Source: a virus. Taken from it: a stretch of 33,322 nucleotides of DNA. The stretch is from the IMG/VR virus record IMGVR_UViG_3300012000_000076, positions 1 through 33,322 of that record. One strand, written 5' to 3'. This document shows positions 1,704 through 25,750 of the stretch, piece by piece; the first letter of the stretch is position 1, and every line of letters begins with the position of its first letter. The position numbers were made by a program, and so were the translations under genes. The notes under the pieces were generated by a model that was not told the DNA's origin, ran no database searches, and saw only the letters and a program-made list of their open reading frames with translations.

Positions 1704-3161
1704 TCATGTGACATAATTTTGCAATACACAGTGGTTTGCTGTCAACCAATTGTTTCCGTATTTCTCGCAGATAGTAGTGAAGGCAGCAATCTTATACAAC
1801 GCGTAATGTTGCGCAAGAGCTGTTTCTGCTTTTCCACTCGCTTGCTTGTCGGACGGAAACTCAACTGCCCGCGTGTCTCGAAGGGCGGCTAAGTAGGCGC
1901 GCTTCTCAACGTTAGCGGGTAATACGCTATGTGTGTGTGCTACCTTTTCAGCCCACACGCGCACACTATGGGGCGCCGCGTTGGCCGGGTAGTACACGTT
2001 GTTCTCAAGCAGCGAGACAACATCGACGTCGTTCGCCAACTTAGAAAACACATTAGGCAGCGCATACGCCACTGCACTAACAAGTTTTGCGTCTGCTGAC
2101 TTAACTGTCAACGCTAAAAAATCTCGCACAGGCAAGATTACTCCAACGTCGGTCAGGCCGCGCAAGACCTCAGACATTTTAACAGATGGGCAGCTATTTA
2201 CATCAAGGGGCGGCTGTACAGTCTCGGAGCTGGCCAGAGCGGTCTGCGCCCAGTTACCCCCGGCGGCAGCTGCTTTCTCGGCCTGCACCAGTTGTGTTAA
2301 CGCCTCCAGTTGCGACTGCACGCGGGCAGCCGGGACGCCGCCGATATCAAAGCCGACGGGCGCAGTAACACCCAGCTGCTCAGCGAGTTCAACCCCGGAA
2401 ATGCAACGATTTGAAGCGGCTTTTTGCAACTGCCCGGATACATAAGCAATGCGGTCAGCCGGGCGGAATACGTGGCTGATATCAAAAAACGTCGGGTTCG
2501 GGTTGTCGGCGTGCAGCACATGGCCGTCTTCCAGCACGCGACCGATGTTGTGCTTTAAACCGCCCGCCTTGCAGTGCCCGCCGTTCTCAACCGAGTCGCA
2601 GTATTCGGCGCGGGTTTTGGCTGTATTTCCGCAGGCCGAGCACTTATCGAACGGGATCTTGCAGGCCATGGAAACCGCAATTTCCTTATCGTTAGCCAGC
2701 TTTTCCAGTTCCTTGTCGGCAATCAGGCCGCCGTTCCGGTCCGCCGCTTCCTTTGAACCGTTGAGCGCCACGACTAACTCGATCCGGCGCATGGGCTCGT
2801 GGTAGGCCGACGCTTTTACAATCCCGAAGCTCTTGGCCGGGTTCTTGTTGGCGTGGTCCCGATAGAAGCGCGCAAACTTCTCAAACGTCTGGTGGTAGTT
2901 GCGGCAGCAGTCTCGTGTAAAGCCGTCGCCGTTGCGGTTCGGGCCGTAGTCTTCTGTAGCGCCGATCGCGATCATGTGGACCGGCACCTCGTCCTTGGCA
3001 AACTTGATGTTTTCAAGCTTGTGGGCGAATTCGGCTCCGGCGCGCTTTACCAGCTCTTGCTTGTCGGCGCCGATGATTCCGCGGCTGGATATCTTAATCA
3101 GCGCGGCGACCGGCTCGCTAAAGTCTTGCGAGTGCGGTTGAATCACCTTGATCATGCTCAT
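1704..3161 (-). CDS. Putative capsid maturation (prohead) protease with Cys-cluster insert
   Basis: A 485-residue protein. Its N-terminal third resembles phage prohead proteases: an NRNGDGF signature (75-81), then His103 in FYRDHANKNP, then a beta-rich stretch with MRRIEL (124-129), and Ser164 in IAVSMAC. His103 and Ser164 fit the His/Ser pair of herpesvirus-type serine proteases such as HK97 prohead protease; the assignment is by pattern, not alignment. Right after it, Cys174, Cys177, Cys188 and Cys197 could form a zinc site. The C-terminal half (240-485) is unassigned and may be released or act in assembly. GGGGAG sits 5 bases before the ATG at 3161. The scaffold-like gene follows directly, which supports a head-maturation role. 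Confidence 0.6.
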   Translation of the reverse strand: MSMIKVIQPHSQDFSEPVAALIKISSRGIIGADKQELVKRAGAEFAHKLENIKFAKDEVPVHMIAIGATEDYGPNRNGDGFTRDCCRNYHQTFEKFARFYRDHANKNPAKSFGIVKASAYHEPMRRIELVVALNGSKEAADRNGGLIADKELEKLANDKEIAVSMACKIPFDKCSACGNTAKTRAEYCDSVENGGHCKAGGLKHNIGRVLEDGHVLHADNPNPTFFDISHVFRPADRIAYVSGQLQKAASNRCISGVELAEQLGVTAPVGFDIGGVPAARVQSQLEALTQLVQAEKAAAAGGNWAQTALASSETVQPPLDVNSCPSVKMSEVLRGLTDVGVILPVRDFLALTVKSADAKLVSAVAYALPNVFSKLANDVDVVSLLENNVYYPANAAPHSVRVWAEKVAHTHSVLPANVEKRAYLAALRDTRAVEFPSDKQASGKAETALAQHYALYKIAAFTTICEKYGNNWLTANHCVLQNYVT

Positions 3162-4135: not shown

Positions 4136-5512
4136 TTACAGTAACCCACGGGCCTTTTCTTGCGCTTCTAAGTTACTCTTCAGGCTTTCGGCGCGCAGCT
4201 TCTCCATCTCGATAAGTTGCTTCACGTCGAAGTCGGCTAACTGCCCCGCTTCTAGACGCTTACGTAACAGCGCCTGCATCGCCGCGCTCGAACCGGTGAA
4301 GTTCGGGGCAATCTCCGCAATCTGGTTGTACGCCGACGCGATCTCGTGCGGGTCGTAGCCAGAGATTACCGGGTCGTTCAGGATGAGGTCGTTCAGTACG
4401 CCGCGAGACTTGATTTGCTGCAGCTTGTTTTCGTGATCAGCGTCCGACATGCTCATGAACGCTTTGCGCTTTTGCTTTTCCGGGTTTGTGCTGGCCTCTT
4501 CGTTGGCGTTCATTTCCGACGACATGCCGCCCGGGCTCATGAGCTTGCCGAGATGCCCCATCGTGCCGCTATAGGAAGTCAGCGGCGGGGCACTATCTGG
4601 TTTTTTTTTAACTACGTTCGCCACCTTCAGCGCTAACGGCGCGGTGCGCGGATCGTGCAGAATCGATCCCGTTACGGGCTCCGGCGCGGCTTTCTTTTCA
4701 ACCGGCGCCGGTGTTTGCGCGGCTAACTTGTTCTGCGCGTCATTAAATGAACTGACAGACGAAATAACGTTTTCAACCAGCGTGACGACAGGAAGGTTAC
4801 CGAAGTAATCTTGCTTGGTCGCGGCCTGTTTCTCCAGTTGTGGATACACAGCGGCGACCTTCTGCAGCACCGAAACGCCGGTCGGGCCAAGGCGCAGACC
4901 AACTTCGCGGACAGCGTCGTTGAAGGACATGTTGCCGGGTACGCGGAAGTACTGGGCCAGTTCGTCCATGGCAGCAGCAGCCTTGGCGTGCGCAACCGTA
5001 GCTTGGCGGCGCACTTCTTCAGCCGCACGTTTCTCAGCCTGCTTCTGGCTGTACAGTCGGCGCGCAGCAGAGTGTTCGTCGCGCGGCGGGGGTACGTATT
5101 CAGGCGCTGGGATCATCGCGCGGGCGGCGGCCGACTTGCGCAGCTGTTCTTGGCGCCGGGCAATAAAGCCCGTCGGCGAAACAGCGTACTCGGTCGAAAT
5201 GATGCTGGTTTGTTTAAGCTCTGCCGATGTCTTTACTTGCTTCGGGTACAGCGCCTCCATGACAACGTCGGCGTCGGCAAGCTGGAAGTCAGCTGCCTTC
5301 TCCAGCGTGTCGGCGCCGAGTTCGCGCTGCTTGTTGGTGCGGCCGGTGTTATAGGCATGCACCATGAGGTTAATGTGCCCGGCCGGAATGTTGGCGGCAG
5401 AAGCGCTCTTGATGATCGCGTCATTGGGGCTCGCACCCTCGTTTACAAGGGTCGCCGCGCGTTCGATCGCGCCGAGCAATTTTTGTTCAGCTTCTTTACT
5501 TAGTGCCCGCAT
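4136..5512 (-). CDS. Hypothetical helical/coiled-coil protein, probable virion protein
   Basis: A 458-residue protein without recognised domains. The middle (about 130-185) is highly charged and likely coiled coil (QKQAEKRAAEEVRRQ). The C-terminus (about 415-458) is another charged helix. The chain contains many short Lys-x-Ala motifs (IIKSA, LEKAA, LRKSA, LQKVA, LEKQA). An ATG at 5545 would lengthen it by 11 residues, but the ATG at 5512 is preferred because GGAG lies 7 bases upstream and it overlaps the end of the previous gene by 17 bases, the local coupling pattern. There is no signal peptide or membrane segment. Neighbours suggest a structural role. Confidence 0.85.
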   Translation of the reverse strand: MRALSKEAEQKLLGAIERAATLVNEGASPNDAIIKSASAANIPAGHINLMVHAYNTGRTNKQRELGADTLEKAADFQLADADVVMEALYPKQVKTSAELKQTSIISTEYAVSPTGFIARRQEQLRKSAAARAMIPAPEYVPPPRDEHSAARRLYSQKQAEKRAAEEVRRQATVAHAKAAAAMDELAQYFRVPGNMSFNDAVREVGLRLGPTGVSVLQKVAAVYPQLEKQAATKQDYFGNLPVVTLVENVISSVSSFNDAQNKLAAQTPAPVEKKAAPEPVTGSILHDPRTAPLALKVANVVKKKPDSAPPLTSYSGTMGHLGKLMSPGGMSSEMNANEEASTNPEKQKRKAFMSMSDADHENKLQQIKSRGVLNDLILNDPVISGYDPHEIASAYNQIAEIAPNFTGSSAAMQALLRKRLEAGQLADFDVKQLIEMEKLRAESLKSNLEAQEKARGLL

Positions 5513-6443
5513 CGGTTTTCTCCGGGAAACGCAGTTCTTGGACAAGAGTTTGATTCTCTAAAGAACCGCCAGCCGCAATAACCATCATTTCATCGTTACG
5601 TAATTCTGCAGCGCCGTCATCAAAGGGTAACATTTTTATGGCTACGGAATCCAGTTTTGTTCCCACTTTAAACGGCAAGCTCGACAGCATAGCCCCGATA
5701 TTTTCCACAATCGTGGCCTGCGATTTCGAGGCGTTGTCGCTGTTTTTCTCGATCTCTACATATTTTACAAAAGAATCGATCAGCGGTAACTGGGTGTGCG
5801 TGTTAACTGGGATGCTGAGGCTGGCGATCGCGGCTTTGTACTTCATGGAGTTAATCGCCACGTCTTGGAAGAAGTTCGATACTCCGCCGGCGTTTTCCGG
5901 CTTGGGGACGTCGACAAACCGATTGATGGCGGCGTCGAGGGCGTGCGCTCCGCCGCGATAACCCAGCAATTTCCATAAAAGATCGTAGTGACGTTCCTGC
6001 AGGCCGCGCGTTACAGCGTCGCCCATGACAACGTTTACGATGTAATCCGAGTTGTAGATTTTTTCGCGGACGTCAAAAAATACGTTGGCATACGCCGTGA
6101 CGATCTCTTCGTTTGTTCCGAGTTTTTCCGCAATTTCTTTATCGCTCTCGCCGGCAAGGATTCGCGCCTCGATTGCCCAACGTGTTGGCGCCTTATCATC
6201 CGCCCAGATCGAGTGCGCCCAGAACAACGCCCGGTCGCGATACAGCGTGGCGTATAACGCGTCGGCGCGGTTGTTTGCCTGCTCGAAGTGCCGCTTCAAG
6301 CGCAAAGCGCGGCGGATCCACGTAAAACCATCGGGGCCGTCAAGCGCGCGGCTTGCGCGTAATCCACCCCCGTCGATATGTACGGCCCGAAGCCAGCGCC
6401 AATTCGGCGGACGCTTCGGGTTATCCCGCATTGCGTTAAGCAT
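5496..6443 (-). CDS. Hypothetical protein with helix-turn-helix
   Basis: A 315-residue protein. Residues about 91-125 (IEARILAGESDKEIAEKLGT and following) read as a LuxR/sigma-region-4-like helix-turn-helix, so DNA binding is likely. The N-terminal 80 residues are basic and tryptophan-rich, and the C-terminal half looks mixed alpha/beta. Phage proteins with a helix-turn-helix in a head-gene cluster are sometimes small terminase subunits; a transcription factor working with the nearby phage polymerase is an equal alternative. I cannot choose between them. The start at 6443 overlaps the previous stop as TAATG, indicating translational coupling. Confidence 0.75.
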   Translation of the reverse strand: MLNAMRDNPKRPPNWRWLRAVHIDGGGLRASRALDGPDGFTWIRRALRLKRHFEQANNRADALYATLYRDRALFWAHSIWADDKAPTRWAIEARILAGESDKEIAEKLGTNEEIVTAYANVFFDVREKIYNSDYIVNVVMGDAVTRGLQERHYDLLWKLLGYRGGAHALDAAINRFVDVPKPENAGGVSNFFQDVAINSMKYKAAIASLSIPVNTHTQLPLIDSFVKYVEIEKNSDNASKSQATIVENIGAMLSSLPFKVGTKLDSVAIKMLPFDDGAAELRNDEMMVIAAGGSLENQTLVQELRFPEKTDAGTK

Positions 6444-6836: not shown

Positions 6837-9221
6837 TTAAGCGTTTGCGATGGCGCCGAGATCGATATCTTGCGCCGCCTCTTCCGGGTACGGCTCAATC
6901 GTCTTTTGCTTGAGGAAGAGGATCACGTCGCCAAGCATTTCGAATGCGTTGCGCAGCGAGTCTTCCAGCTCCGGCATGTCGGCCTTACCATACCGCTCAG
7001 CGAAGCGATCGCCGTGCCAGTAGAACATGAACAAGATGCGGCCGAGCTTATCGAGGCCCTTGGTCAATTCGCCCATGTAACGATCGACGAGCGAATCGTC
7101 ACGTACGGCGCGGAGCATGGCTCCAACCATTGCCGTGTCGAACACTTCGCGCTGACCGCTCTGAGCGGCGTCGATCACCGAGCGCACGTCCTTCTGGTCG
7201 AGCATGGTGTTCGGGTTGTATACGCTGCGGTCGGTCTGGCTCGCGCTCATGCCCGGAACAGGAACGCCGACGTCGATACCGAGTTGCGTCGGTACGCTGG
7301 CGCCCATGATCGTTTCGCCACCCATCACCGGACCCGGATCAGACGGCGCGCCCGGCGCGTCGTTGATCATCATCGGAGCACCGTAGGGCGCGGCGTACTT
7401 CACGCGGCACTCAAACTTCCGCTTGGCAGCGGCGGTCTTCAGGATCTCGCGCGCGGCTTCTTCACGCAGGCCGTGGTGCTCGACAAGCGTCACCAGCGCC
7501 TTGATCGGGCTGAGGCCGGCTTCCTTATTAATAACGACTTCAGTGCCGTTGTGATACACGGTCAGCGCGGCCGTCTTGTTCATTAACGCCAGCTGGGCGT
7601 CGACAAGATTGCCGGGCTGCAGGGCCGGAGGATCGCTCTCGCCGCAACCGCACGCGCCCTGATCTTCCGCTACGTCAGCGTCGTCTTCACCCTTGCTGAC
7701 CTTAAGGAGCTTGAAACCCTCCGGCACAAAGATGTCGCCCATGCTGGCGCGCAGGCTGGCACCCTTCTTGCCGTTCAAGTGGAGACGCACTCCGTCGCGC
7801 CACTTGTCGTAGTTCAGCGGGTCGGTGTAGCAAGAACCACAGATGCTGCCCTTGGGCGGGTACTTCGAGTGGTCTTCGAGGTGAACTTCGTAGGTCTGGG
7901 TGTTGTCGTCAGACTTGCCGTACTCGCGAATGACGCGGAACGGGGTTGTCGTGTCGCCGCGCTTGCTGAGCGCGATGTAGCGAGATGTTTTGCTTGGTAC
8001 GCTGTTCGCTTCGGGCAGCGAGTCGAACCAGTCGTCAAACTCGTCGCCTTCAACGCGGGCCAGCGCAAATACTTGGTCAGCGCGGGTGTTCAGCCAGTCG
8101 GGTTTCCCTTCTGTGCGGACCACGGTGATGAAGTTCTCGCGCTTGGCGGCACCTTGTGGATGAACAGCGACGTAGCAGCGCTCGATGTTGCCCGGCTTGA
8201 CAAGAATCTCGTACAGGCCGCTCTCGGTCGGGTTGAACAGCTTCTTCTCGACCTGAATGTGATACGGAATCGAGACGTTGTCGCGGTCACGCTGGTCAAC
8301 GATCAGCACGCCGTCGCGCAGCAACTTCTCGTGATCTTCTTCGGTGTAGCCGCGCGGAAGCTTGGTCTGTACCGTCGCGTCATACGTAATGACCTTCAGG
8401 CCCTTAGCCGCTTCCGGCTCCTTGGGCGCTTCGGACAGCACGCTGGCTACCTTTGTCGTCGGCGTAGCAGCGCGCACCTTCGCGGCGTCCATCGCCTCTT
8501 TGATGATATTTAAACCGTGAAACTCCTCGATGGCAGCGGCGATCTGCGGGGCATGCTTGCAGGTGTTAATCAGCGAGCCGATCATCTGCAGGCCGGCTTC
8601 CTTCAGGAACGCCTTCAGGTTTACAGCGTTGCCGATTTCCTTAAGCGTTTGCGCCGTGTCCAGCGTGGCGCTCTTGGCCAGCGCCGGCATGGCGGCGGTC
8701 ATCATCTCTTTGAGCGTGGGCTGCGCCGAGCCGAACTTGGCCGGGCTGCGCGAAAGCTGGGTAAAGTCGGGCTGGCGCTGGCCGAGGCCCGAAAGGTTCC
8801 GCTCGACGCCGCTGCCCAGAATGTTGGGCTTGCGGTTAACGAGGTAGTTAATCCAGTTTTCCTTGAGCGGTACGAACATATCCTGATTCTTGATGTACAG
8901 GAGTTCGTGGCCCTTGAGGTCGCCGTTCAGGAAGAAGACCGGAGCGTACAGCCAGTTAGAACCGACCTTGAACGCAAAAACGCCGACCGCCTTGGTGTTT
9001 TCACGGTTGCGGTCGAGAAGCTGGAAACCGATTTCGTGGTCGAGCAGCTTGGGGGCCGAGTCGCGCAGATAGGCGTGGGCTAAATTGCTGAAAGATTGCT
9101 CGAAAGAAGTGTCGTCGCCTTTGCCGCCTAAATCAGCGTACTTGGTCTGGGTGCGGTCATACGACTGCATTACCTTCAGCCAGTGCTTTACAGACGACTC
9201 TTTAGCTTTTTTGTTGTACAC
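6837..9221 (-). CDS. Large hypothetical protein, probable virion component (GTG start)
   Basis: A 794-residue protein of unknown family. The start is GTG at 9221, supported by a GGAGG site 7 bases upstream; the next in-frame Met is 17 residues in. Residues 1-130 look globular alpha/beta, 160-265 are helical with Lys-x-Ala motifs (LAKSA, LKEAG, TKVAS), and 275-510 are beta-rich. There are two Cys pairs, CGSC (461-464) and CGC (524-526), that may bind metal. The last 130 residues are strongly helical and amphipathic. It directly follows the RNA polymerase C-terminal gene, so it could be a structural protein co-packaged with the polymerase or simply the next late gene. Confidence 0.85.
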   Translation of the reverse strand: MYNKKAKESSVKHWLKVMQSYDRTQTKYADLGGKGDDTSFEQSFSNLAHAYLRDSAPKLLDHEIGFQLLDRNRENTKAVGVFAFKVGSNWLYAPVFFLNGDLKGHELLYIKNQDMFVPLKENWINYLVNRKPNILGSGVERNLSGLGQRQPDFTQLSRSPAKFGSAQPTLKEMMTAAMPALAKSATLDTAQTLKEIGNAVNLKAFLKEAGLQMIGSLINTCKHAPQIAAAIEEFHGLNIIKEAMDAAKVRAATPTTKVASVLSEAPKEPEAAKGLKVITYDATVQTKLPRGYTEEDHEKLLRDGVLIVDQRDRDNVSIPYHIQVEKKLFNPTESGLYEILVKPGNIERCYVAVHPQGAAKRENFITVVRTEGKPDWLNTRADQVFALARVEGDEFDDWFDSLPEANSVPSKTSRYIALSKRGDTTTPFRVIREYGKSDDNTQTYEVHLEDHSKYPPKGSICGSCYTDPLNYDKWRDGVRLHLNGKKGASLRASMGDIFVPEGFKLLKVSKGEDDADVAEDQGACGCGESDPPALQPGNLVDAQLALMNKTAALTVYHNGTEVVINKEAGLSPIKALVTLVEHHGLREEAAREILKTAAAKRKFECRVKYAAPYGAPMMINDAPGAPSDPGPVMGGETIMGASVPTQLGIDVGVPVPGMSASQTDRSVYNPNTMLDQKDVRSVIDAAQSGQREVFDTAMVGAMLRAVRDDSLVDRYMGELTKGLDKLGRILFMFYWHGDRFAERYGKADMPELEDSLRNAFEMLGDVILFLKQKTIEPYPEEAAQDIDLGAIANA

Positions 9222-9300: not shown

Positions 9301-11181
9301 TCAAGGCTTCCACCCGCTTGTTGCGCCTGTTACGCCAAATTGCTCGCCCTGCGCTAAAGCCGGGACATAGCTACTGCCCGATGTATCGCTTGTTAACCCG
9401 CGCTGGACGCTATTCATGAGTCCTTTTTCCTGATACGAACCGAGCATGCGGGTCATCCAGTCGGGGTCGTTCGAGATATTTGCCATACCGCGGACCATCT
9501 CGGCTTGGAACGGCGGCGGTTCTTTATGCGCCTGCACGGTTTTTATGCCGTATTTATTCAAGTTGGTCAGCACGTTTTTACCGATCTTTGTGCCGATTGA
9601 ATAGTGCAGTATGGGTTTTTCAAGATAATGCCCAGTTAATGTGTTCGGCGCGCCGGTCACACTACCATCGCGCGGCGTCCAGTTTCGCTCGATCGCGGAA
9701 TAAGGCACGACGTCGTCCGGCGCGTAATCGCCGTATTCGTCGGTCATGCGAACATGATTTACAAGCCCACGCGCCAGTAGTTCAATGTTGCGCCGATGGG
9801 CTGTAATACCGCTGTTTCCCATCACTTGACGCATAGCTTGTACAAAATACCGTCGACCCTCCCCGACGCCCTTATGGCGAACAATTTCCGCTGGATTTGG
9901 CATACCGTCCGATAAGACGTCACCAGCTTCAAGGTCATCGCCCTTTTTAACCGCCAGTTCTCTTTCCGTCGGGACGTAATGGTCCTGCCCGTTAATCTGC
10001 ACATAGTGGCCGCCCTGCGGAGCCGGACGAACTTCCTGCACCCGGCCATCGAGCTGGGCGTGGGTAGCGCCGCCGGGATACTTCTTCGGCACCTGTACAA
10101 GCGCGTTGAGCGCTTTAAAACCCGAGATTGCTCCTGCGCCTCCGACACCGCCAGAGTGCTTCGAGCTAATCTGGCTTTGCGTGACAGGTTCAGACAGTGC
10201 TTGGGCCGCCGCGATACCCACATAATCTCCGACAGGCGGTAAACGGCCTTTTTCACGATAGCCGACATCTTTTGCATAAACACCACCATCTCCCGGGCCG
10301 CCTACGATCGGGCTACGGACTAAGATATCTTTAGCGCCCATGTCCTTCAGGTCGCGAAGGATCTTGGGCGTTAAAATTGTGTTGCGCTTGTACGGACCGA
10401 CGGCGCGCGCCAGCAAGGCGCCTTCGTTATCGGGGTCGTCAACGTCGGTCGGGTAGCCGCGCTCTTCTGCGGCTGCCTTGCGCTCTTCGTCGGTGTCGTC
10501 ATCGTCGTCACCTGTCACGAGCAGGCGGTGGGTCATCTGCGCCAACTGCTTGCCGTAAAAGCCAGCGTCGGCGGTGGCGGTCTTGAGGTCGATAACACCT
10601 TTGCGGGTGCCGAACGCGCCAGCGAAATACTCGACGGGGCGTAATCCTTGGCTGTAGCCGCGCAGCACGGGAATTGGGATCGGGTCGCCGCGGTGGTCGA
10701 GATACTGCATGTCGGCGCCAAGGATCGAGTTCAACTGGAACTTGTTGCCAACGCCTGACCCGGCAATCTGATGCACGAGCGGGTTGTCTTGGCTCTCGGC
10801 TTCCTTGTACACCTTGTCGAGCAGTTCTTGCTGCGCGGTCTGAGCAAGTTCAAGCAGCTTGAGTTGCCGCTGCTTGTCGTCGAGCCTGCGGTCAGCAAAG
10901 ATGTCGCGCATCTGGTTTTGCACGCGCAGCTGGACCGCGCGGGCGGCGAGCGTGGGTTTGATATCTTTAAGCCCGAACGACAGCCCGTTGGTTGAGTAGC
11001 CGGCGTCGCGGCCGATGTCGTGAAGTTTTTTCATGACTTCACGGTATTTTTCCGGGTGTTTTTTGGCTAATTCAGTCGCCACGCCGGACATACTCTTTTT
11101 GGTCAACACGCGATCGTAGTCGCGCATATCAGGCGGTAACGCCTCGTTAACCATCAGTTGTCCGAGCGTGGTTTTTAACAT
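9301..11181 (-). CDS. RNA polymerase beta-prime subunit, C-terminal part
   Basis: A 626-residue protein matching the C-terminal half of bacterial beta-prime. Residues 191-213 (GTRKGVIDLKTATADAGFYG and on) are the bridge helix. Residues 320-345 (YVGIAAAQALSEPVTQSQ, then SSKHSGG) are the trigger loop, with His342 in the place of the catalytic trigger-loop histidine. The insert between them (224-310) is acidic (DDDDD). RRNIELLARGLVNHVRM near 490 resembles the conserved C-terminal block of beta-prime. It must pair with the fused beta/beta-prime N chain at 12165-16574 to form the active centre. The start at 11181 is preferred: it sits one base after the previous TGA (TGACATG). An upstream in-frame start at 11235 would overlap that gene. 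Confidence 0.93.
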   Translation of the reverse strand: MLKTTLGQLMVNEALPPDMRDYDRVLTKKSMSGVATELAKKHPEKYREVMKKLHDIGRDAGYSTNGLSFGLKDIKPTLAARAVQLRVQNQMRDIFADRRLDDKQRQLKLLELAQTAQQELLDKVYKEAESQDNPLVHQIAGSGVGNKFQLNSILGADMQYLDHRGDPIPIPVLRGYSQGLRPVEYFAGAFGTRKGVIDLKTATADAGFYGKQLAQMTHRLLVTGDDDDDTDEERKAAAEERGYPTDVDDPDNEGALLARAVGPYKRNTILTPKILRDLKDMGAKDILVRSPIVGGPGDGGVYAKDVGYREKGRLPPVGDYVGIAAAQALSEPVTQSQISSKHSGGVGGAGAISGFKALNALVQVPKKYPGGATHAQLDGRVQEVRPAPQGGHYVQINGQDHYVPTERELAVKKGDDLEAGDVLSDGMPNPAEIVRHKGVGEGRRYFVQAMRQVMGNSGITAHRRNIELLARGLVNHVRMTDEYGDYAPDDVVPYSAIERNWTPRDGSVTGAPNTLTGHYLEKPILHYSIGTKIGKNVLTNLNKYGIKTVQAHKEPPPFQAEMVRGMANISNDPDWMTRMLGSYQEKGLMNSVQRGLTSDTSGSSYVPALAQGEQFGVTGATSGWKP

Positions 11182-11182
11182 G

Positions 11183-11422
11183 TCACGGCGTCCAGACGAT
11201 CTTTTGCATCGGCTTTGGTTTGAAGTCCGACACAACCACGGTCTTGTCGATCCCTAACGCCCGCAAGAGCGAATGAAAGTCTTTTTCCCCGGGCGTTGAG
11301 TAAACAATCGCTTCGTCGACCTGAATGGCGACGAAGATGGGGTTGCCCAGATCGTCTTCAACAACGACGCTGTGCGCTTTCTGCTCCGCTGGCTGCAGGC
11401 TGTTTTGTGTCTTAACCAGCAT
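11183..11422 (-). CDS. Small hypothetical protein between RNA polymerase genes
   Basis: A 79-residue protein of unknown family. It overlaps the end of the Pro/Ala-rich gene by 11 bases and ends one base before the polymerase C-terminal gene begins. From about residue 17 it looks like a small beta-alpha-beta domain (AHSVVVEDDLGNPIFVAIQ, then DEAIVYST). The in-frame Met at 11452 would lengthen the overlap; the ATG at 11422 is favoured. Its place between the two polymerase genes suggests a polymerase-associated factor, but nothing in the sequence proves it. Confidence 0.75.
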   Translation of the reverse strand: MLVKTQNSLQPAEQKAHSVVVEDDLGNPIFVAIQVDEAIVYSTPGEKDFHSLLRALGIDKTVVVSDFKPKPMQKIVWTP

Positions 11423-12143
11423 CGTTCGCGAGGCTCCGAAGCATGGCAGCAAGCGCGTTTGCTTTAATCTGCGTCTCGGTGGGCTCGCTCGGATCTTGGG
11501 CGACGTTTAACGGTACGGGGCGACCAATGTAAGACGCCGACTTTACCGGCTCGGGCGCTTCCCACCATGCAGCCTTCGCGCTTGGGTCTTCCTGCGGCGC
11601 GTTGGGCGGCATCGGACCGCCCGGGGGCAGCGGACCACCCGGCGGCTGCATTCCGCCCTGCGCGTTCGGGTCTTGCGGCGGCGGAGCCATCGGGCCGCCG
11701 GGCAGCGCGGTTTCAGCCGGCGGCGCGCCAGTCGTGCCGGGAGGCAGAACCAGCGACTCGGGCGGCACCTGCACGCCCATCGCGTTCATAATCGCGGTAA
11801 GTTGCTGCTGCATGTTGTACAGCCGGTAATCGAGCATCTGCATCATCTGCTCTGGCTTCAGCTTTTGCTGAACACCAGCGGCAGGAGCTGCGCCCGGAGC
11901 GGCAGGTGCGGCCGGAGCTGCGGGAGCAGCGGGCGGTACCATCCCCATAGCCGCAGGATCCATTGGTGGCGCAGCGGCTGCGGCAGCAGCCGGATCGGCC
12001 GGAGGAGCAGCCCCCATGGCGGCTGGGTCGACCGGCGGCGCACCACCAGCGGCAGCAGGATCCACTGCCGCTCCGGGCACTAAAGCGGACTTTTCAAATC
12101 GCGCCTTGGCCAGCGCAATTAATTCGGGGTTTACGGTAAACAT
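11412..12143 (-). CDS. Pro/Ala-rich low-complexity protein between the two RNA polymerase genes
   Basis: A 243-residue protein. The first 20 residues are an ordinary helix. Residues 27-71 contain four degenerate tandem units of the type DPAAMGAAPP, followed by an AAP repeat (72-88). Residues 90-125 form a predicted helix rich in Gln and Met (KPEQMMQMLDYRLYNMQQQL). Then comes a Pro/Gly-rich stretch to about 190 and a charged C-terminus containing PVKSASYIG. The ATG at 12143 has GGAGG 5 bases upstream. The architecture suggests a flexible linker or tether with one structured helix. It is the first of two genes inserted between the polymerase halves; no known sigma or polymerase-factor motif is visible. 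Confidence 0.8.
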   Translation of the reverse strand: MFTVNPELIALAKARFEKSALVPGAAVDPAAAGGAPPVDPAAMGAAPPADPAAAAAAAPPMDPAAMGMVPPAAPAAPAAPAAPGAAPAAGVQQKLKPEQMMQMLDYRLYNMQQQLTAIMNAMGVQVPPESLVLPPGTTGAPPAETALPGGPMAPPPQDPNAQGGMQPPGGPLPPGGPMPPNAPQEDPSAKAAWWEAPEPVKSASYIGRPVPLNVAQDPSEPTETQIKANALAAMLRSLANDAG

Positions 12144-12144
12144 A

Positions 12145-12156
12145 CAGCCTCCATGC
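12145..12156 (-). repeat. Ribosome-binding leader GCATGGAGGCTG, copy 2
   Basis: Identical to the 12-mer at 9225-9236. It supplies the GGAGG site for the ATG at 12143. The ATG inside it would encode a 7-codon peptide overlapping the main start. Confidence 0.6.
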
Positions 12157-12169
12157 GTAACAAGTTACG
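12156..12169 (-). repeat. Palindrome at the stop codon of the RNA polymerase fusion gene
   Basis: CGTAAC-TT-GTTACG is a perfect 6-bp dyad overlapping the TAA stop of the fusion gene. The 2-base centre is too tight for a stable RNA hairpin, so a protein-binding dyad or chance are both possible. Confidence 0.3.
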
Positions 12170-15100
12170 TATTATCTTCCACAATATGGACCGGGGTGTC
12201 CACCTCGATTTCGCCACGACGGTACGCTTGCATCGCGTCTTGCTTGCTGCGAAACACCCGCGGTTTGGCCTTTTTGTTAATTCTACTGGACGCCAGATAC
12301 AGGCCGGTCTGGTAATCCTTGTTCGGAACATAGTGCGCCCGGAACGTCGACGCGGCGAATAAGTTCTTGCTGGGCAGCATCTTTTCGACGGCTTCTTTTG
12401 CGGCGTCGTCCGTACTGGGTACGTGATACTGCATCGCGTCGCCGTCGAAGTCAGCGCCGAAGCCCTTGGTGATCACGGGGTTTACTTCCATCACCTTGTT
12501 CTTCGTCAGCCGCGGATAGAACGCCATCATACCGTAGCGGTGTAACACCGGCGCCCGATTAATAACAATCGGGCGCGAGCCCATCTGGCGATCAAGCTCG
12601 GCAGCGGCTTCCTTGTTTTTATCTTCGACGGCTTGCATAGCCTGCATCCGCGGTAAACCTCGACGCACAAGCCCGCGCACCACGAATGGCTTATAAATAT
12701 CCCACGCCTTCTCTTCTGGCAAGGCGACTTCGTCCATGTCCAGATCGGGATTCGGCGTGATCACGGCGCGGCCGACCAAATCCACCGTCGAGCTGAGTAA
12801 CTTACGCTGGACGGTGCCGTACTTTGGTGAGTTACCAAAGATGTGGCGCAGGAAGCCCTTCACGTCGCGCTCGGCGTTCTTGGGCTGCTGCGGCTCACCC
12901 AAACCAGTCACGGCCTTCATCGAGTCGTAAACACTCAGCCGCTCGTCGCCGTAATCTGTCAACGCGCCCGACGCTTCCTTGAGCGTGTCATTGGCGTCGA
13001 GCAGTTCTTTGTAAAGGTAGTTCGCGTCCGCCACGAGCGGCAGCTTTTTACTGCCCATTGTCGAGACTGGACGAAACAACGGCGGCAACACAGGCACCTT
13101 GCTGATCATCCAGTCCTTCGGGTGTACGCCAGTCTTCTCGGCGCTCTTTAAGAAACCCAGCCGGCGGACAGCGGCATCGCGCAACGTCTTGCGGCCCGAT
13201 TTGATATCTTCGCGGGCCTGATCGATCGCCTTCGGTAAGTTAATACGTTCCAGCGCTTCTTTGATTGCCGACGGGCCGGTCTTGTCGCCCAGCTGCTCTC
13301 GTCCAGCCAACACGTTGCGGAACTGCTTTTCGGTCATCCCCAACACGCGGCGAATCGGATCTTCCATGACGGGATTGGGCATCGGCTCATGCAAGGTGAT
13401 CTTGCTCCAACGATTGCCGCCGTGGCCGCCTGTCAGCGTCTCATCAAACAAGCCGCCAGCGATGGGCTTGAGCCGACCTTTCCAGTCCACCGTCTCGGAG
13501 CTTTTCAGTTCGCGTGCGCCAGCAAGGGCGTCAACATCCTTGTCTGTCATCGCCATGATGTTGGACTTGGTGCCCGTGCGCACGACGTTAATACCTGACG
13601 CCTTGAGCTGATTAACAAACTTCTCGTAGACGTGCGGCACCTTGGGCAGCGGCGGCGTATAGCCAGCCATGAACTGCGACCAGTACTCGGGATTGGCTTG
13701 GCCGCGCACCATTTTGGCGTCGCGGATAACTTTGCCGGCGCCGTGCGATAACAGCGCGCCCAGATCGAGCATGCCGATGCGCTTGGCGCCCTCGCTTCCG
13801 CCCTTGGCCGGCGTGCCTTCGGCGGTGTACGCGCCCATCGCGCGGCCTTGCGCCTTGGATTCGCTCGTGTGGTGCAGCTTCATAAAAAAGCGCTGCCCAG
13901 TTAACACGCCGCCAATCTTTCGCCCTGTTTCGGGATCGATAACGTCCTCGGTATCGGACAGGCCGTGCTTGGCGAGTTCTTTCTGCGCAAACTCAATCAG
14001 GTCGGTCTTGTTATCAAAATCCTTGAGCTTGAACGGCTGGCCGGTCTTAGCGGCGACTTTACCCAGCGCGGCTTCGATAACCTGCGCCGGGTTAATACGG
14101 CTGATCAGGCCCAGCGGCGACACCAGCACCTCGAACGGGCTGCCTTCGCGGTCCTTGGGCATCTGGTCGTCGGGTACGATCTCAGCCACTACACCCTTGT
14201 CGCCGAAGCGGCCCGTGAGCTTGTCGCCTACGTCCATCGGGGCTTGATTCTTAACGACAACGCTCACGCCCTTCTTGGTGTGCATGACGTCGGTGACAAT
14301 CCCGGGCGCATGATGATCCCACGTGATTGTTTCGTTGGTGAAGCTTCCGGCACGTCCACGGTGAACTTTGCCGTACACCGTGTCTTTTTTCTTGGCGACT
14401 AACACCAACGGGTCGCCAAATTTTACCGTGGCGCCTTTTTTAATTGCGCCGTTGTCGTCAAAGTTATCAAGCAGTTTTTTGTCGTATTCAGACGGAAATA
14501 AACTCACGAACGCCTTTTTGCCAACGTGAGTATTATCGTCCCACTCTGCTTCATGCTGATACATGTGCTCCGATGTCAGCCGCTTGGCAGCCGATTCAGA
14601 GATCACGACCGCATCTTCGTAGTTCTTGCCGCGGAAGGGTAGGTACGCCGTGCGCAGGTTCAGGCCCAGCGCCGCGCTCCCCTTGTCGTCCGTAAAGTTC
14701 GACCGCGCAAGCAGCTGGCCGGGTTCAACCACGTCGCCGGGTTTAACAAGCGGCGTCTGGTGTAAGAACGTCTTACGGTTGTAAGGCATCTCGTTGTACA
14801 AATCGATCGTTTTTTTGTTGCCGTCTTTGTCGCGCAGCACGATGCCGTCCGGCGTCACGTCGACCACTTGCGCGCGCTCGGCCGCTCGTGTGGCGCCCAG
14901 CTTCTCGCCCATCTCATCTTCGTGCGAGACGCCGCCGTCGTCGTCAGCCTTGGCCGACTGCACCAGCGGCGCCTCAGCGCCCACCAGCGGGAGCGCCTGT
15001 GTAAACATGCGGCTACCCATGATCACGCGGTGTCCCTTGATCATGGTTTTCATCGGCACCATGTTGGACAACGTCGAGAACGTCGAATCCATGTTCGGCA

Positions 15101-16574
15101 GGCTGAACTGCGCTTCTTTCTTCGGCACGTACTTGAGCTTGCCGTTGACCAGCGCGGCCACGACGGGCAGGCCGTTGTCTTCTTCGCCGGGGAACACGAG
15201 CGGGGTGTCGGCCAACTCCTGCGGTGTTTTAAATATCTTTTCGCCGGTCTTCATGTCGATCACAGGCGTATAGATCTTGCCGTCGGAGCCCTTCATGGCG
15301 CCGCGGGCGAAGCGCATGTCGACACCCACTTTTCCAGACTCGGGCGTGCGCAGATAGTCGATAAAGCCCAGATGGCTCGGCTGGACGCTGCGCGATTCCG
15401 CGGGCACGGCATCCAGCGAACCGATGCCACCCTCACCCATGCGGGTCACGCGCGTCTGGTGGTCGAAGATCTCGGCGGGATTGATTTCTTCCAGACTCGA
15501 CCCCAAGCCGCTGCCGATCAGTGCCGCCGAGATAGCCTTGTCGAACACGCCTGTCGGGATGTGGTCGATCGACTTCTTGGCGGTGGCTTTCCAGAGCAGT
15601 TTGTTTAAGCCCTGCCGATCTTTGGTGAACCGCTCGGCAATGAGGTCTTCGGGGCCGACGACAGACTGATACACCATGTTGTCGCGGTCGTCGCTTTCGG
15701 CCTCGCGGCGGTTCACTGCGATAAGCTTTTTGGTGATCGCCAGAATCGTGTCCGGCGTCATGTTCTTGTATTCAGAACCCAGCGTGCGCCGTGTTACTTC
15801 CGGGTCGAGTTCGGTCTTGGCAAACTCCTCGGCAATCGCCTTGGCCTTGGCAATGGCGTCAGCGCCGGCGACGGGACGATTCACCATGCGAGCGTAAATC
15901 TTGTCGAGCGTGCCGGCGTCGCCCTTCTGCATGTTAACGGCGGTGATCTCGTTGCCCCACGCCTTGCGAATATCCTGATCCGACACGCCCATGCTCTTGA
16001 GCAGCGGCATGAGCGGGATCTGCGCCTGCCCGATGCTGATCTTGAACACGCCAGTTTTTGGATCTAGAAAGTATCGGTGCGAGCGGCCTTTGCCGGGCAG
16101 CGTGTTGACGTGCGCCTCGATCTCGCCGTTGTCCTTCTCGCGGGTAAACACGCCGGGACGCAGGCGCATCTGGTGCGCCAGTGTGTACTCCACGCCGCCG
16201 TTTACGAACGTGCCGGCGTCAGTCAGATACGGCACATGCGCGATGGTAGCCCGACGCTGCCCGACCGGCTGGCCGGTTTTGTTATCAATAAGCGTCCACG
16301 TGCCCTGCAGTTTCCGGGCCAACGTCCCTCTAGAAAGAACGGCTTTCTTCTGGTCTGCCCGCGTGAAGCGATCAGGCCCGGAGTATCCGACGTCCTGCAG
16401 TTGCAGCGTATACAGATCGTTCTGCAGCGGCTTCAACCCCTGCGCGCTGGTCAGCGCCTGATTGAAGATGTTGTTGCGCATCGAACCGATGTCGCCGAAC
16501 GTGCGCATCGTGGGCGCAGCTGGCAGAATCGGCGCGGCGGGCGCTTTTATGGGCGGCAGCTCGGGGGTCGGCAT
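12165..16574 (-). CDS. RNA polymerase beta subunit fused to beta-prime N-terminal half
   Basis: One 1469-residue chain covers beta and the first half of beta-prime of a DNA-dependent RNA polymerase. Beta landmarks: PSHLGFIDYLRTPESG (399-414, rifampicin-region block), GKNYEDAVVISES (649-661), GDKLTGRFGDKGV (783-795, with the two conserved active-site lysines), and the C-terminal clamp block ending near KASGINV (991-997). Beta-prime starts near 1020 (LKPIAGGLFDE, 1035-1045), then VPVLPPLFRPV (1160-1170), INRAPVLHRYG (1338-1348) and the catalytic GADFDGD with Asp1375, 1377 and 1379 chelating magnesium. The beta-prime N-terminal zinc-finger cysteines are absent. The chain ends 90 residues after the catalytic loop; bridge helix and trigger loop are in the gene at 9301-11181. 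The start at 16574 follows the previous TGA by 3 bases. Confidence 0.95.
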   Translation of the reverse strand: MPTPELPPIKAPAAPILPAAPTMRTFGDIGSMRNNIFNQALTSAQGLKPLQNDLYTLQLQDVGYSGPDRFTRADQKKAVLSRGTLARKLQGTWTLIDNKTGQPVGQRRATIAHVPYLTDAGTFVNGGVEYTLAHQMRLRPGVFTREKDNGEIEAHVNTLPGKGRSHRYFLDPKTGVFKISIGQAQIPLMPLLKSMGVSDQDIRKAWGNEITAVNMQKGDAGTLDKIYARMVNRPVAGADAIAKAKAIAEEFAKTELDPEVTRRTLGSEYKNMTPDTILAITKKLIAVNRREAESDDRDNMVYQSVVGPEDLIAERFTKDRQGLNKLLWKATAKKSIDHIPTGVFDKAISAALIGSGLGSSLEEINPAEIFDHQTRVTRMGEGGIGSLDAVPAESRSVQPSHLGFIDYLRTPESGKVGVDMRFARGAMKGSDGKIYTPVIDMKTGEKIFKTPQELADTPLVFPGEEDNGLPVVAALVNGKLKYVPKKEAQFSLPNMDSTFSTLSNMVPMKTMIKGHRVIMGSRMFTQALPLVGAEAPLVQSAKADDDGGVSHEDEMGEKLGATRAAERAQVVDVTPDGIVLRDKDGNKKTIDLYNEMPYNRKTFLHQTPLVKPGDVVEPGQLLARSNFTDDKGSAALGLNLRTAYLPFRGKNYEDAVVISESAAKRLTSEHMYQHEAEWDDNTHVGKKAFVSLFPSEYDKKLLDNFDDNGAIKKGATVKFGDPLVLVAKKKDTVYGKVHRGRAGSFTNETITWDHHAPGIVTDVMHTKKGVSVVVKNQAPMDVGDKLTGRFGDKGVVAEIVPDDQMPKDREGSPFEVLVSPLGLISRINPAQVIEAALGKVAAKTGQPFKLKDFDNKTDLIEFAQKELAKHGLSDTEDVIDPETGRKIGGVLTGQRFFMKLHHTSESKAQGRAMGAYTAEGTPAKGGSEGAKRIGMLDLGALLSHGAGKVIRDAKMVRGQANPEYWSQFMAGYTPPLPKVPHVYEKFVNQLKASGINVVRTGTKSNIMAMTDKDVDALAGARELKSSETVDWKGRLKPIAGGLFDETLTGGHGGNRWSKITLHEPMPNPVMEDPIRRVLGMTEKQFRNVLAGREQLGDKTGPSAIKEALERINLPKAIDQAREDIKSGRKTLRDAAVRRLGFLKSAEKTGVHPKDWMISKVPVLPPLFRPVSTMGSKKLPLVADANYLYKELLDANDTLKEASGALTDYGDERLSVYDSMKAVTGLGEPQQPKNAERDVKGFLRHIFGNSPKYGTVQRKLLSSTVDLVGRAVITPNPDLDMDEVALPEEKAWDIYKPFVVRGLVRRGLPRMQAMQAVEDKNKEAAAELDRQMGSRPIVINRAPVLHRYGMMAFYPRLTKNKVMEVNPVITKGFGADFDGDAMQYHVPSTDDAAKEAVEKMLPSKNLFAASTFRAHYVPNKDYQTGLYLASSRINKKAKPRVFRSKQDAMQAYRRGEIEVDTPVHIVEDNT

Positions 16575-21328: not shown

Positions 21329-22153
21329 TCAGGTTTTCGGCACGAGTACATACGGCCGACCATTAATAACAAGTGTGCCGTTGATCTGCAAACCGGCATC
21401 TTTAGTAATGGGGTAAGGTTTCGTACGTTTGCCGTAAAGTTTTATGATTTCCGCAATGTCGCCCTCTTGCGGCTTTGTAACGTTCGGGTCGTAATACGGC
21501 GCCATGAGGTTGCCGGCGTTTAAGTGCGGCAAGCCCAGCGCATGACCCAGTTCATGGCAGATGACAGCGACGGCCATATTGAATGACCAGTCTTCCGCCT
21601 CGTCGAACATCTGATCGAGCTGGACGTTCTCCGCAACGCCACACGGCAGTTCGCTCCACGCCAACGTGCCGCCTTTGTTATCTAAACCGTTCTTCTTGCC
21701 GACGCCGGAGCGGGCGTAAATGTTCGCCTTCTTGTGCGTGTCCACGCGGACCGGGTCAACCATGCAGACCTCGGCCCACTGCGAGAACGCAATGTCGTAC
21801 GCCTCGGCGACTTGAGCGTTTGTCAGCCCCGGCAGATGGATCTCGTGGTAATACGAGATGTTCGGCATCGGCCACTTGCAGGGATCGCCACCGGGGGCTG
21901 TGATGTTGAAATCAGGCAGCCCGCAGCGGTGACGATTGATGCGATGCGCGGTCTTCGGGCCGACTGTGCCGGTGGGATTCAGGCCGTTGAATTCTTGGAA
22001 CGTCCGAATCGCCTTTTGCAGCTCTGCCCCTTTGATCTTTTTGACCTGAGCCAGCGTTTTGTCGCCGAAGTACCCCAACGAGTGGAGCCGTCGGAGAATT
22101 TCACTGATGGGCAGAACATGAGCATCGCTGTGTATTGTTGGCTTCCGTGCCAT
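21329..22153 (-). CDS. Matrixin-type zinc metalloprotease with peptidoglycan-binding prodomain and cysteine switch
   Basis: A 274-residue protein with the full layout of matrix metalloproteases. Residues about 12-75 form a PG_binding_1-like helical domain (AELQKAIRTFQEFNGLNPTG). RCGLPDF (76-82) is the cysteine switch, Cys77 being the expected zinc ligand of the latent form. The catalytic domain holds HELGHALGLPH (200-210; zinc ligands His200, His204, His210, base Glu201), the Met-turn Met217 in NLMAPYYD, and the family-typical ending GDIAEIIKLYG (231-241). A short beta tail follows. No signal peptide is visible, so export would need lysis, a holin or packaging in the virion. AGGA is 9 bases before the ATG. 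Its neighbours are small membrane proteins, which favours a lysis or cell-envelope role. Substrate unknown. Confidence 0.92.
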   Translation of the reverse strand: MARKPTIHSDAHVLPISEILRRLHSLGYFGDKTLAQVKKIKGAELQKAIRTFQEFNGLNPTGTVGPKTAHRINRHRCGLPDFNITAPGGDPCKWPMPNISYYHEIHLPGLTNAQVAEAYDIAFSQWAEVCMVDPVRVDTHKKANIYARSGVGKKNGLDNKGGTLAWSELPCGVAENVQLDQMFDEAEDWSFNMAVAVICHELGHALGLPHLNAGNLMAPYYDPNVTKPQEGDIAEIIKLYGKRTKPYPITKDAGLQINGTLVINGRPYVLVPKT

Positions 22154-24063: not shown

Positions 24064-24330
24064 TCAGCGCCCAAAAGACAGCATGAACTTGATAAATACC
24101 ACCAGCCACGCCAACAGGCCGCTGATAGCGAAAAAAACGATGACCGCGCTCAGACTGACCACGCGCCCGAGCTTCTGAATGGGGATGTCGCGCAGCAGTT
24201 TCCACGCCTTGAGGTAATCAACCGCGCCGGGTTGCTTCGGCGGTGTGGGTTCCGGGGTCGGCGCCGGGGTGTCGGGCTTCTTTTTCCGTCCCAGCAGTTC
24301 GTTGAGCTTATCAAGCAGCGGTGTCGCCAT
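24064..24330 (-). CDS. Small protein with C-terminal membrane span
   Basis: An 88-residue protein. The N-terminus is charged (LLDKLNELLGRKKK), followed by a Pro/Thr-rich linker (about 19-34) and a single hydrophobic span near the C-terminus (about 60-84). The ATG at 24330 lies inside the end of the previous gene (20-base overlap) and is preceded by GGGGGAA. The layout, a tail-anchored protein with a proline-rich stalk, is seen in some spanin-like or injection proteins, but no motif allows a firm call. Confidence 0.76.
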   Translation of the reverse strand: MATPLLDKLNELLGRKKKPDTPAPTPEPTPPKQPGAVDYLKAWKLLRDIPIQKLGRVVSLSAVIVFFAISGLLAWLVVFIKFMLSFGR

Positions 24331-25750
24331 GTGGCTTCCCCCAGTTCTTAATCGTGTCAAAGACGTCGTTGCCGTACAGCTGCGTCGCCTTGTCAAACGT
24401 GTTCATCTGCGGCAGCGTTCCAGTCGCAGCGGCTTGCGCCATCTCGTAGCGGTAACGCGGATCGAGCATCGAACGGTACTGATGGGCCTTCATGCGCGAC
24501 GCCAGAATGAAATCGCCGCGCTGTTTGGCCTTCATCAAGTGATCGACGACGTTTTCGTACACCGGTTTGCCGTGATCAAACACAAACGGCGTGCGGAAGT
24601 TCAACAAGTTGCCAAACTGCTGCGCATACACGCTGTTGGTGGCCGCTTTGACGTGCGAACCGACAACTCCGGCTGGCGCATGAAACCGAAACTTCGTCGG
24701 CGTGTGCGTAATGCCCTTGTACTTCGGCTTTGGGTCGTCCACGTGCCAGTCCTGCGGCGCTTGCGCGATTAATCGCCGCAGGATCTCGTGCTTGCGGTCG
24801 TAATCGCGGCGATCCGAGTGCGTTTTGGCCGCCCGGAGTTCGTCGAGGATGCGCGGACGGGCTGGTGTGTCGTCCTGCTCCGCGCCTTTCTCTATTTCTT
24901 TGACTTTTTCGTAGTACTGCGGATCTTCGGACAGGTGATCTTTGGCAATTTCTTTGGCAATTTGATCATTTCTTGTGTGTTCGTGCTCATGTTTAGCTCC
25001 TTCGGCTAAGGCAGGCGCAGAAAAATCCCGATCGGGTAAATTATCGGCTTCACCGCCCGGTAACAGGTCTTTTTTTACCGAGCGGGAAAGATCGTTGGCC
25101 GCTTTTAGTTCTCCCCTACTGATGGGGTTACTAAACCTATGCTCTTCGTCACTTTCGGCAGGGGTTTCGTAACCCTTGGCCTTGCCGTTGTCGAGGAGAA
25201 TGCCCTTGCGGCGCACGGCAACAGTGATGTGAAACGGGTGATCGCCGTTAGGCAGAGCCGACAGGCCGTAGCTCTTGCGCAAAGTCGCCAGAGTGGGCGC
25301 AGACACCTGAATCGCCCAGACTTTGCTGATGTGGCCGCCGCCGTCAGGTGTAATTTCTTTCAGGCCGCTCAGCGTATAGCCAAACATGTGGCCGCGCTCG
25401 TTGATTTTGTCCGCGCCGACTTGGTTCACCTCGTCGGCGGTCATCACCGAAATGTGCGCGTTTAAGAGTTCCTGCTTGTCGCCGAGATTCCACACGCCGG
25501 CGGTGGGCAGTTCCGCGCCCGGTTCCGTCATGGCGTCGAACACGCCGCGGATAAGGGCGTTCGGTACAGATAACAAAAGCCAGCCGGACTTGGCGAGATA
25601 GAGACGGCCAGCCAGCGGGTAACTCATGGCGGCTTGTTTTCCGCCCACACGCTGTAACCAGCCAAACGCATTGCCGGCCGCATATGCCGGATGCTTGCGC
25701 AGGTACTCAGGCTGCCACGCCAGCGGATCTAACGCAGATAAGCTATCCAT
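24311..25750 (-). CDS. Protein with N-terminal 2H-phosphoesterase-like domain
   Basis: A 479-residue protein. Two H-x-S/T-x motifs, NAHISVMT with His99 and PFHITVAV with His174, are spaced 75 residues apart inside a beta-rich region (about 55-185), the pattern of 2H phosphoesterases (LigT-like fold), which act on 2'-5' or cyclic nucleotide phosphodiesters. Residues 190-330 are charged, His/Asp/Lys-rich and probably disordered or coiled coil. The C-terminal 140 residues form a second, unassigned domain (KFRFHAPAGVVGSH and on). AAGG is 6 bases before the ATG at 25750, 14 bases after the tRNA. Known phage 2H enzymes include anti-CBASS protein Acb1; that role here is only a hypothesis. Confidence 0.6.
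   Translation of the reverse strand: MDSLSALDPLAWQPEYLRKHPAYAAGNAFGWLQRVGGKQAAMSYPLAGRLYLAKSGWLLLSVPNALIRGVFDAMTEPGAELPTAGVWNLGDKQELLNAHISVMTADEVNQVGADKINERGHMFGYTLSGLKEITPDGGGHISKVWAIQVSAPTLATLRKSYGLSALPNGDHPFHITVAVRRKGILLDNGKAKGYETPAESDEEHRFSNPISRGELKAANDLSRSVKKDLLPGGEADNLPDRDFSAPALAEGAKHEHEHTRNDQIAKEIAKDHLSEDPQYYEKVKEIEKGAEQDDTPARPRILDELRAAKTHSDRRDYDRKHEILRRLIAQAPQDWHVDDPKPKYKGITHTPTKFRFHAPAGVVGSHVKAATNSVYAQQFGNLLNFRTPFVFDHGKPVYENVVDHLMKAKQRGDFILASRMKAHQYRSMLDPRYRYEMAQAAATGTLPQMNTFDKATQLYGNDVFDTIKNWGKPHGDTAA

What the first reader, a model, noticed from the sequence alone, without database searches (positions are those of the whole stretch)
9301..16574. Phage RNA polymerase with beta fused to the N-half of beta-prime and a separate beta-prime C-half
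The 1469-residue chain contains all beta landmarks, then beta-prime up to and just past DFDGD. The bridge helix and trigger loop are in a second gene. Jumbo phages of the phiKZ/AR9 type are known to split both beta and beta-prime into separate genes, Helicobacter has a full beta-beta-prime fusion, and cyanobacteria split beta-prime. A beta plus beta-prime-N fusion together with a split beta-prime combines both features and I do not recall it as a described phage arrangement. The rest of the subunit set (alpha, omega, sigma) is not in the window.
Basis: partly seen in the sequence, partly recalled or inferred. Interest (0 to 1): 0.85.

Follow-up and report, generated by a model that had tools for sequence, protein, structure and literature searches.

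The report
Fused-and-split phage RNA polymerase
This large phage makes its own bacterial-type RNA polymerase from two rearranged chains, one carrying all of beta joined to the front half of beta-prime and the other carrying the back half, and it belongs to a widespread, apparently undescribed phage lineage whose cultured member packs the enzyme and a sigma factor into its particles.

Summary
ORF 12165-16574(-), 1469 aa, is RpoB joined seamlessly to RpoC up to about 90 residues past DFDGD. ORF 9301-11181(-), 626 aa, is the rest of beta-prime, with bridge helix and trigger loop. It is not an assembly accident: I found 85 distinct homologous fused chains. In the 75 with beta-prime-C in view, it always lies downstream on the same strand, 0.6-5.9 kb away. 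Cultured Salmonella phage Arash and Vibrio phages D69/D148/D181 share the layout. In Arash virions the fused chain is the most detected protein, beside beta-prime-C and a sigma factor whose homologue is in 34 of 35 related genomes. No alpha was found. A broader set of phages carries beta and all of beta-prime in one ORF of about 2,050 aa; together with the window's clade they form one group (support 100), apart from bacteria and mReC-like phages. Most likely beta and beta-prime fused first, and beta-prime later split near the site cut in cyanobacteria and phiKZ-type phages. I found no description of either state. Best reading: a sigma-dependent, alpha-less virion RNA polymerase, a new variant of a known kind. 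Virion role, assembly and activity of the window's own proteins are inferred.

The parts
12165..16574 (-). fused beta + beta-prime-N gene, 1469 aa
   Evidence: Pfam Rpb2_2/2_3/2_6 then Rpb1_1/Rpb1_2 in one ORF; PDB matches to beta then beta-prime; homologues in 85 distinct chains
13560..16574 (-). beta part (about residues 1-1005), with the GDKLTGRFGDKG lysine motif
   Evidence: alignment to bacterial beta to its C-end; motif kept in 79 of 85 chains, rest truncated or variant; model aligns with bacterial beta, Z about 33-35, rmsd 3.3-4.8
12168..13559 (-). beta-prime N-half (about residues 1006-1469), joined without linker domain; N-terminal zinc-binding domain missing
   Evidence: alignment of ELKSSETVDWKGRLKPIAGGLFDE to [23 protein letters not shown]; no Cys near this point in 85/85 chains
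12438..12452 (-). catalytic DFDGD (residues 1375-1379)
   Evidence: sequence; D[FY]DGD present in all 83 chains long enough to show it
9301..11181 (-). separate beta-prime C-half gene, 626 aa, ATG start
   Evidence: Pfam Rpb1_5; predicted model pLDDT 78 aligns with E. coli beta-prime 569-1371, Z about 28
10531..10638 (-). bridge helix (residues 182-217 of the second chain)
   Evidence: 36-residue helix in the model; alignment to Salmonella beta-prime
10132..10200 (-). trigger loop region, SEPVTQSQISSKHSGG (E. coli R933 and F935 positions are S and K, H936 kept)
   Evidence: alignment; the pattern [IL][SG].KH recurs in the clade
11412..12143 (-). Pro/Ala-rich gene (243 aa) between the two halves, function unknown
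   Evidence: conserved at 160 clade loci, no match in Arash/D69; no Pfam or PHROG match
11183..11422 (-). small conserved ORF (79 aa from ATG) directly before the beta-prime C-half
   Evidence: 144 clade loci
6837..9221 (-). homologue of Arash Gp218, a virion protein
   Evidence: HMM match 7.9e-13; Gp218 in Arash virion proteome
4136..6443 (-). two overlapping genes (5496-6443, 4136-5545), weak homologues of Arash Gp219 and Gp220
   Evidence: HMM matches about 2e-6; Gp220 in virion proteome
1704..3161 (-). homologue of Arash Gp222, a virion protein
   Evidence: HMM match 1.5e-51; Gp222 in virion proteome

Best explanation
The two genes encode the core of one bacterial-type (double-psi beta-barrel) RNA polymerase: chain 1 brings all of beta plus beta-prime up to and past the Mg-binding DFDGD, chain 2 brings bridge helix, trigger loop and the rest of beta-prime. 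Shown: domain content, conserved catalytic motifs, invariant pairing of the two genes, absence of a detectable alpha in relatives, and co-conservation of a sigma factor encoded elsewhere. Inferred: the covalent beta/beta-prime join replaces the assembly role of the alpha dimer; the second chain docks on chain 1; the phage sigma directs the enzyme to phage promoters; and core plus sigma are packed into the virion and delivered with the DNA to transcribe early genes without host polymerase, as the Arash proteome suggests. Evolution: beta and beta-prime fused in an ancestor (state kept by the fully fused phages), and beta-prime was later cut after its barrel domain in the lineage holding the window. 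A mobile element at the cut is a plausible route, because this lineage carries many inteins and a group I intron in these genes.
For: Domains and folds. Motifs kept. Every one of 75 chains with beta-prime-C in view is fused, with the partner downstream on the same strand. One beta-prime barrel per genome in 11/11 records, so a single RNAP; no alpha in any of 11 and 15 records (controls ring). Sigma homologue in 34/35 genomes, including Arash Gp10 and Vibrio D69, with Sigma70_r3 and r4 domains. Arash virion proteome: fused chain Gp206 most detected (3516 spectra, 128 unique peptides, 100% coverage), beta-prime-C Gp216 1210, sigma Gp10 467; per residue about 2.3, 2.0, 2.0 (my division; PMC10585845; lengths). 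The second sigma Gp196 is not in that list. Window genes downstream of the RNAP match Arash virion genes. Trees: fused lineage one group, support 100; fully fused relatives.
Against: No biochemistry. Virion data are from Arash, about 32% identical to the window's chain; its authors name carry-over of abundant protein as an alternative, spectral counts are crude, and some enzymes with only 2 unique peptides also have high counts. The trigger-loop arginine and phenylalanine are replaced, so kinetics may differ. Omega was not searched. The fused-chain model is moderate (pLDDT 71, pTM 0.49). L311, a fully fused chain inside or beside the split clade, leaves one split plus re-fusion, or more than one split, open.
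Confidence: 0.75

Rival explanations
1. It is an active phage RNA polymerase, but a non-virion one, made during infection for middle or late genes; its presence in Arash particles is carry-over.
For: Arash authors raise carry-over. Several metabolic enzymes also appear in that proteome.
Against: Gp206 tops the list with 128 unique peptides, partner and one sigma appear at similar counts per residue, while the other sigma (Gp196) is absent. Genes sit among virion genes in both subclades.
Confidence: 0.2
2. Assembly error or frameshift makes the apparent fusion and split.
For: The window is a metagenomic fragment.
Against: 85 distinct chains in independent assemblies plus four cultured phages share it; Arash peptides are reported to cover 100% of the fused chain.
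Confidence: 0.01
3. The split came first, or independently of fusion, inherited from cyanobacteria or a phiKZ-type ancestor with a split beta-prime, and fusion to beta came later.
For: The cut lies about 15 residues from the cyanobacterial one and in the region cut in phiKZ/AR9 (PMC7598289).
Against: Fully fused, unsplit chains are the wider group and the split chains with L311 form one clade beside or among them, 98-99 support; trees place the lineage away from YerA41 and EP_H11, which are split but unfused. phiKZ/AR9 were not in the trees.
Confidence: 0.1
4. The enzyme has lost transcription and serves as a structural or DNA-translocating virion protein.
For: Very abundant in Arash particles; trigger-loop substitutions.
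Against: Catalytic DFDGD and both beta lysines conserved across the lineage, and a sigma factor is co-conserved.
Confidence: 0.04

Closest known systems
Salmonella phage Arash Gp206 + Gp216 + Gp10 (PMC10585845); Vibrio phages D69, D148, D181
   Same: Same fused beta/beta-prime-N, same separate beta-prime-C, homologous sigma, partly syntenic virion genes.
   Different: Only about 32% (fused) and 24-27% (C-half) identical; halves 4.7 kb apart in Arash with opposite-strand genes between; published annotation calls them plain beta and beta-prime. D181 has a group I intron in the fused gene.
phiKZ/AR9 virion and non-virion RNAPs (PMC7598289, PMC7824862)
   Same: Phage multisubunit RNAP, beta-prime cut after the barrel, no alpha.
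   Different: There beta is also cut, nothing is fused, two RNAPs per genome, no sigma; here beta is whole and fused, one RNAP, sigma present.
mReC phages (PMC7481178)
   Same: Deep-branching phage beta and beta-prime recognisable by bacterial models.
   Different: Contigs with the mReC capsid hallmark Gp23 have separate, unsplit beta-prime then beta; the window's clade has no Gp23 (0/14) and is a separate group in the trees.
Yersinia phage YerA41, Escherichia phage EP_H11
   Same: Beta-prime in two genes.
   Different: Beta is not fused to beta-prime; different branch of the tree.
Yeast linear element pGKL2 ORF6/ORF7 RNAP (PMC6211774)
   Same: Beta fused to part of beta-prime, plus a small separate beta-prime C-end: the same topology.
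   Different: By that paper only the last conserved beta-prime regions are on the separate small chain, so the cut is later; eukaryotic element.
Helicobacter/Wolbachia beta-beta-prime fusion (own knowledge) and cyanobacterial RpoC1/RpoC2
   Same: Fusion in the first, near-identical cut site in the second.
   Different: Neither combines both; both use alpha and omega (own knowledge).

Membership tests
Double-psi beta-barrel multisubunit RNA polymerase | beta and beta-prime conserved domains | tested here: met
   Pfam Rpb2_2/3/6, Rpb1_1/2/5
Double-psi beta-barrel multisubunit RNA polymerase | DxDGD and the two beta lysines | tested here: met
Double-psi beta-barrel multisubunit RNA polymerase | RNA synthesis | not testable with these tools
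   needs protein
Arash-type virion RNAP lineage | fused beta/beta-prime-N plus separate beta-prime-C, common ancestry | tested here: met
Arash-type virion RNAP lineage | co-encoded Gp10-type sigma | tested here: met
   in 34/35 genomes of the lineage; the window itself is a fragment and none was seen in it
Arash-type virion RNAP lineage | protein present in virions | not testable with these tools
   published for Arash only
phiKZ/AR9 jumbo-phage RNAP | beta split into two or more chains | tested here: not met
   beta is one piece, fused onward
phiKZ/AR9 jumbo-phage RNAP | beta-prime split after its barrel domain | tested here: met
phiKZ/AR9 jumbo-phage RNAP | two RNAPs per genome and no sigma | tested here: not met
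   one barrel per genome, sigma present
mReC | Gp23 (PF07068) capsid | tested here: not met
   0/14 in the clade and 0/14 in fully fused-side records; 7 of the 8 mReC-like records are positive
mReC | member of the mReC RNAP clade | tested here: inconclusive
   separate from mReC-like contigs in trees, but the paper's own contig list could not be read
crAss-like/YonO single-chain RNAP | no recognisable sequence similarity to bacterial beta/beta-prime models | tested here: not met
   strong Pfam matches
Yeast VLE K2ORF6/7 RNAP | common ancestry | not tested
   compared from the paper only

The most novel reading that the evidence does not exclude
A broad, undescribed phage lineage carries a sigma-dependent, alpha-free RNA polymerase in which beta and beta-prime are one chain of about 2,050 residues, packed in the virion as a holoenzyme; in one branch, holding the window, the single chain was later re-cut next to its active site, showing the order fusion then split.
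Probability: 0.55. Interest if true: 0.78.

Novelty: new variant of a known kind. Interest (0 to 1): 0.66.

Why it matters
Cellular multisubunit RNAPs rely on an alpha-type platform to join beta and beta-prime. This lineage offers a natural, apparently alpha-free, bacterial-like enzyme in one or two chains, with its own sigma and an isolated phage (Arash on a laboratory Salmonella strain) to test it in. It makes two open questions testable: how phage RNAPs assemble without alpha, and in what order RNAP subunits fuse and split. It also suggests how such phages could transcribe early genes independently of the host, and it gives a new deep branch for RNAP evolution.

Tried and rejected
L142-L144 (phage-collection records with separate rpoB/rpoC) first looked like unfused phage relatives; their sequence is plainly bacterial and they were used as outgroup. 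A search of bacterial genomes with the fused alignment found no relative, so no host or prophage clue. A scan with the Bacillota beta-prime alignment found only one relative, itself a fused-type contig. PHROGs gave almost nothing for neighbouring genes. Identity with mReC was considered and dropped on capsid, gene layout and tree, with the caveat that the paper's contig list was not readable. A single origin of the split was tested: not rejected (AU p 0.18), not proven. Promoter motifs were not analysed. Papers on the arrangement: none found, but most subscription papers and bioRxiv are not in the library. The trees used the quick method with LG+G4 or LG+C20 models; deep branches should be treated with care.
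Full report
1. Observation. The window is a complete 33,322-base IMG/VR record, a linear fragment. On the minus strand, ORF 12165-16574 encodes 1469 aa and ORF 9301-11181 encodes 626 aa. Pfam finds Rpb2 domains 2, 3 and 6 followed by Rpb1 domains 1 and 2 in the first, and Rpb1 domain 5 in the second. PDB searches agree. Alignment to bacterial proteins places the join at the natural beta C-end and beta-prime N-end with no linker domain, and the cut between Salmonella beta-prime residues about 553 and 568, some 90 residues after NADFDGD. The N-terminal zinc-binding domain of beta-prime is missing (no cysteine near this point in 85/85 chains).

2. Structure. AlphaFold2 of the second chain (pLDDT 78) aligns with E. 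coli beta-prime 569-1371 and with cyanobacterial RpoC2, whose residues 1-6 fall at model residue 15-18. So the phage cut lies about 15 residues before the cyanobacterial one. The high rmsd most likely reflects domain orientation of an isolated half. The fused chain from residue 295 (pLDDT 71) aligns with bacterial beta (Z 33-35; Foldseek 1e-44); the junction region is modelled as ordered.

3. Distribution. Searches of viral contigs with the fused chain, with an alignment of it, and with the C-half gave 85 distinct fused chains, down to about 31% identity. In all 75 with the C-half in view it is separate, downstream, same strand, 614-5936 nt away. In one further contig (L391) it lies about 48 kb away. 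Cultured phages with the layout: Salmonella Arash, Vibrio D69, D148, D181. The two halves are therefore stable partners, not debris.

4. Wider lineage. Of the 80 kept, 47 carry beta, beta-prime-N and beta-prime-C in one ORF with nothing separate; complete ones are 2007-2301 aa, median 2066. In whole-chain trees, fully fused and fused-split chains form one group (100), apart from bacteria and from mReC-like phages; the fused-split chains plus L311 form a clade (98-99). One split is not rejected (AU p 0.18). Where the motif could be read, fully fused chains mostly keep a bacterial trigger loop (MRTFH/MKAFH), whereas split chains and L311 have the variant with Lys-His, which agrees with the tree.

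5. Accessory subunits. Long relatives have one RNAP, no alpha (controls positive) and a sigma-like protein with regions 3 and 4, homologous to Arash Gp10 (1e-17) and present in 34/35 genomes; region 3 is also found in 13/15 records of the fully fused side. Omega was not searched for.

6. Virion link. In Arash virions (PMC10585845) Gp206, the fused chain, leads with 3516 spectra and full coverage; Gp216 has 1210, Gp10 467. Divided by length these are about 2.3, 2.0 and 2.0 per residue, portal 1.5, capsid 4.3. The other sigma, Gp196, is not listed. The authors offer early transcription or carry-over as explanations. The window's genes downstream of the C-half match Arash Gp218, Gp220 and Gp222, listed in virions, and Gp219, which is not listed. 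Hence a virion holoenzyme is the likeliest role, by inference.

7. Comparison. phiKZ/AR9 enzymes cut beta too, fuse nothing, come in pairs and lack sigma (PMC7598289, PMC7824862). YerA41 and EP_H11 have split but unfused beta-prime; Carin-5, RHph_Y65, Va2 and 1.031.O have whole beta-prime. mReC-like contigs have beta-prime then beta as separate genes and the Gp23 capsid, which the fused lineage lacks. The yeast pGKL2 enzyme has the same topology with a later cut (PMC6211774). No paper found describes the phage arrangement.

8. Origin of the cut. These genes attract mobile elements: inteins at several active-site positions and a group I intron in the fused gene of Vibrio D181. Intron-driven splitting has been proposed for phiKZ-type RNAPs (PMC7598289). 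For the window it is plausible, not shown.

9. Verdict. Real, conserved, apparently undescribed as an architecture, and experimentally accessible; a new variant of phage multisubunit RNAP rather than a new kind of system.

Noticed in passing
L207 1-6414 and 7522-11457; L005 15329-18385; L126 9013-14661; L225 7204-10257; L029 9980-15421: Inteins (Hint/Intein_splicing/LAGLIDADG in Pfam; L029 by splice motifs only) interrupt these RNAP genes at conserved sites, including the trigger loop and, in L207, the DFDGD loop itself; L207 carries four inserts.
   Followed up: partly
L145 7431-7711 and 3634-3841: Two group I introns in Vibrio phage D181, one inside the fused RNAP gene next to a homing endonuclease; the relative D69 has the gene uninterrupted.
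   Followed up: partly
window 27243-28274 (-): Actin-like protein of the Volactin family (PF25216, 1e-62), in a part of the window that the fetched relatives' loci do not cover or share.
   Followed up: no
window 21329-22153 (-): Matrixin-type metallopeptidase with a peptidoglycan-binding domain, conserved in about 94 loci.
   Followed up: no
window 24311-25750 (-): 2H-SAK phosphoesterase domain with DUF5661, function not examined.
   Followed up: no
window 25764-25837 (-): tRNA-Asn(gtt) gene.
   Followed up: no
L107 14955-18581, L194 8998-13107, L121 16030-18786, L389 13912-17631: Beta-prime-C chains with a C-terminal extension of roughly 300-750 residues of unknown content.
   Followed up: no
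L142, L143, L144: Records filed as phage clones are bacterial rpoB/rpoC contigs, a contamination of the public phage collection.
   Followed up: yes
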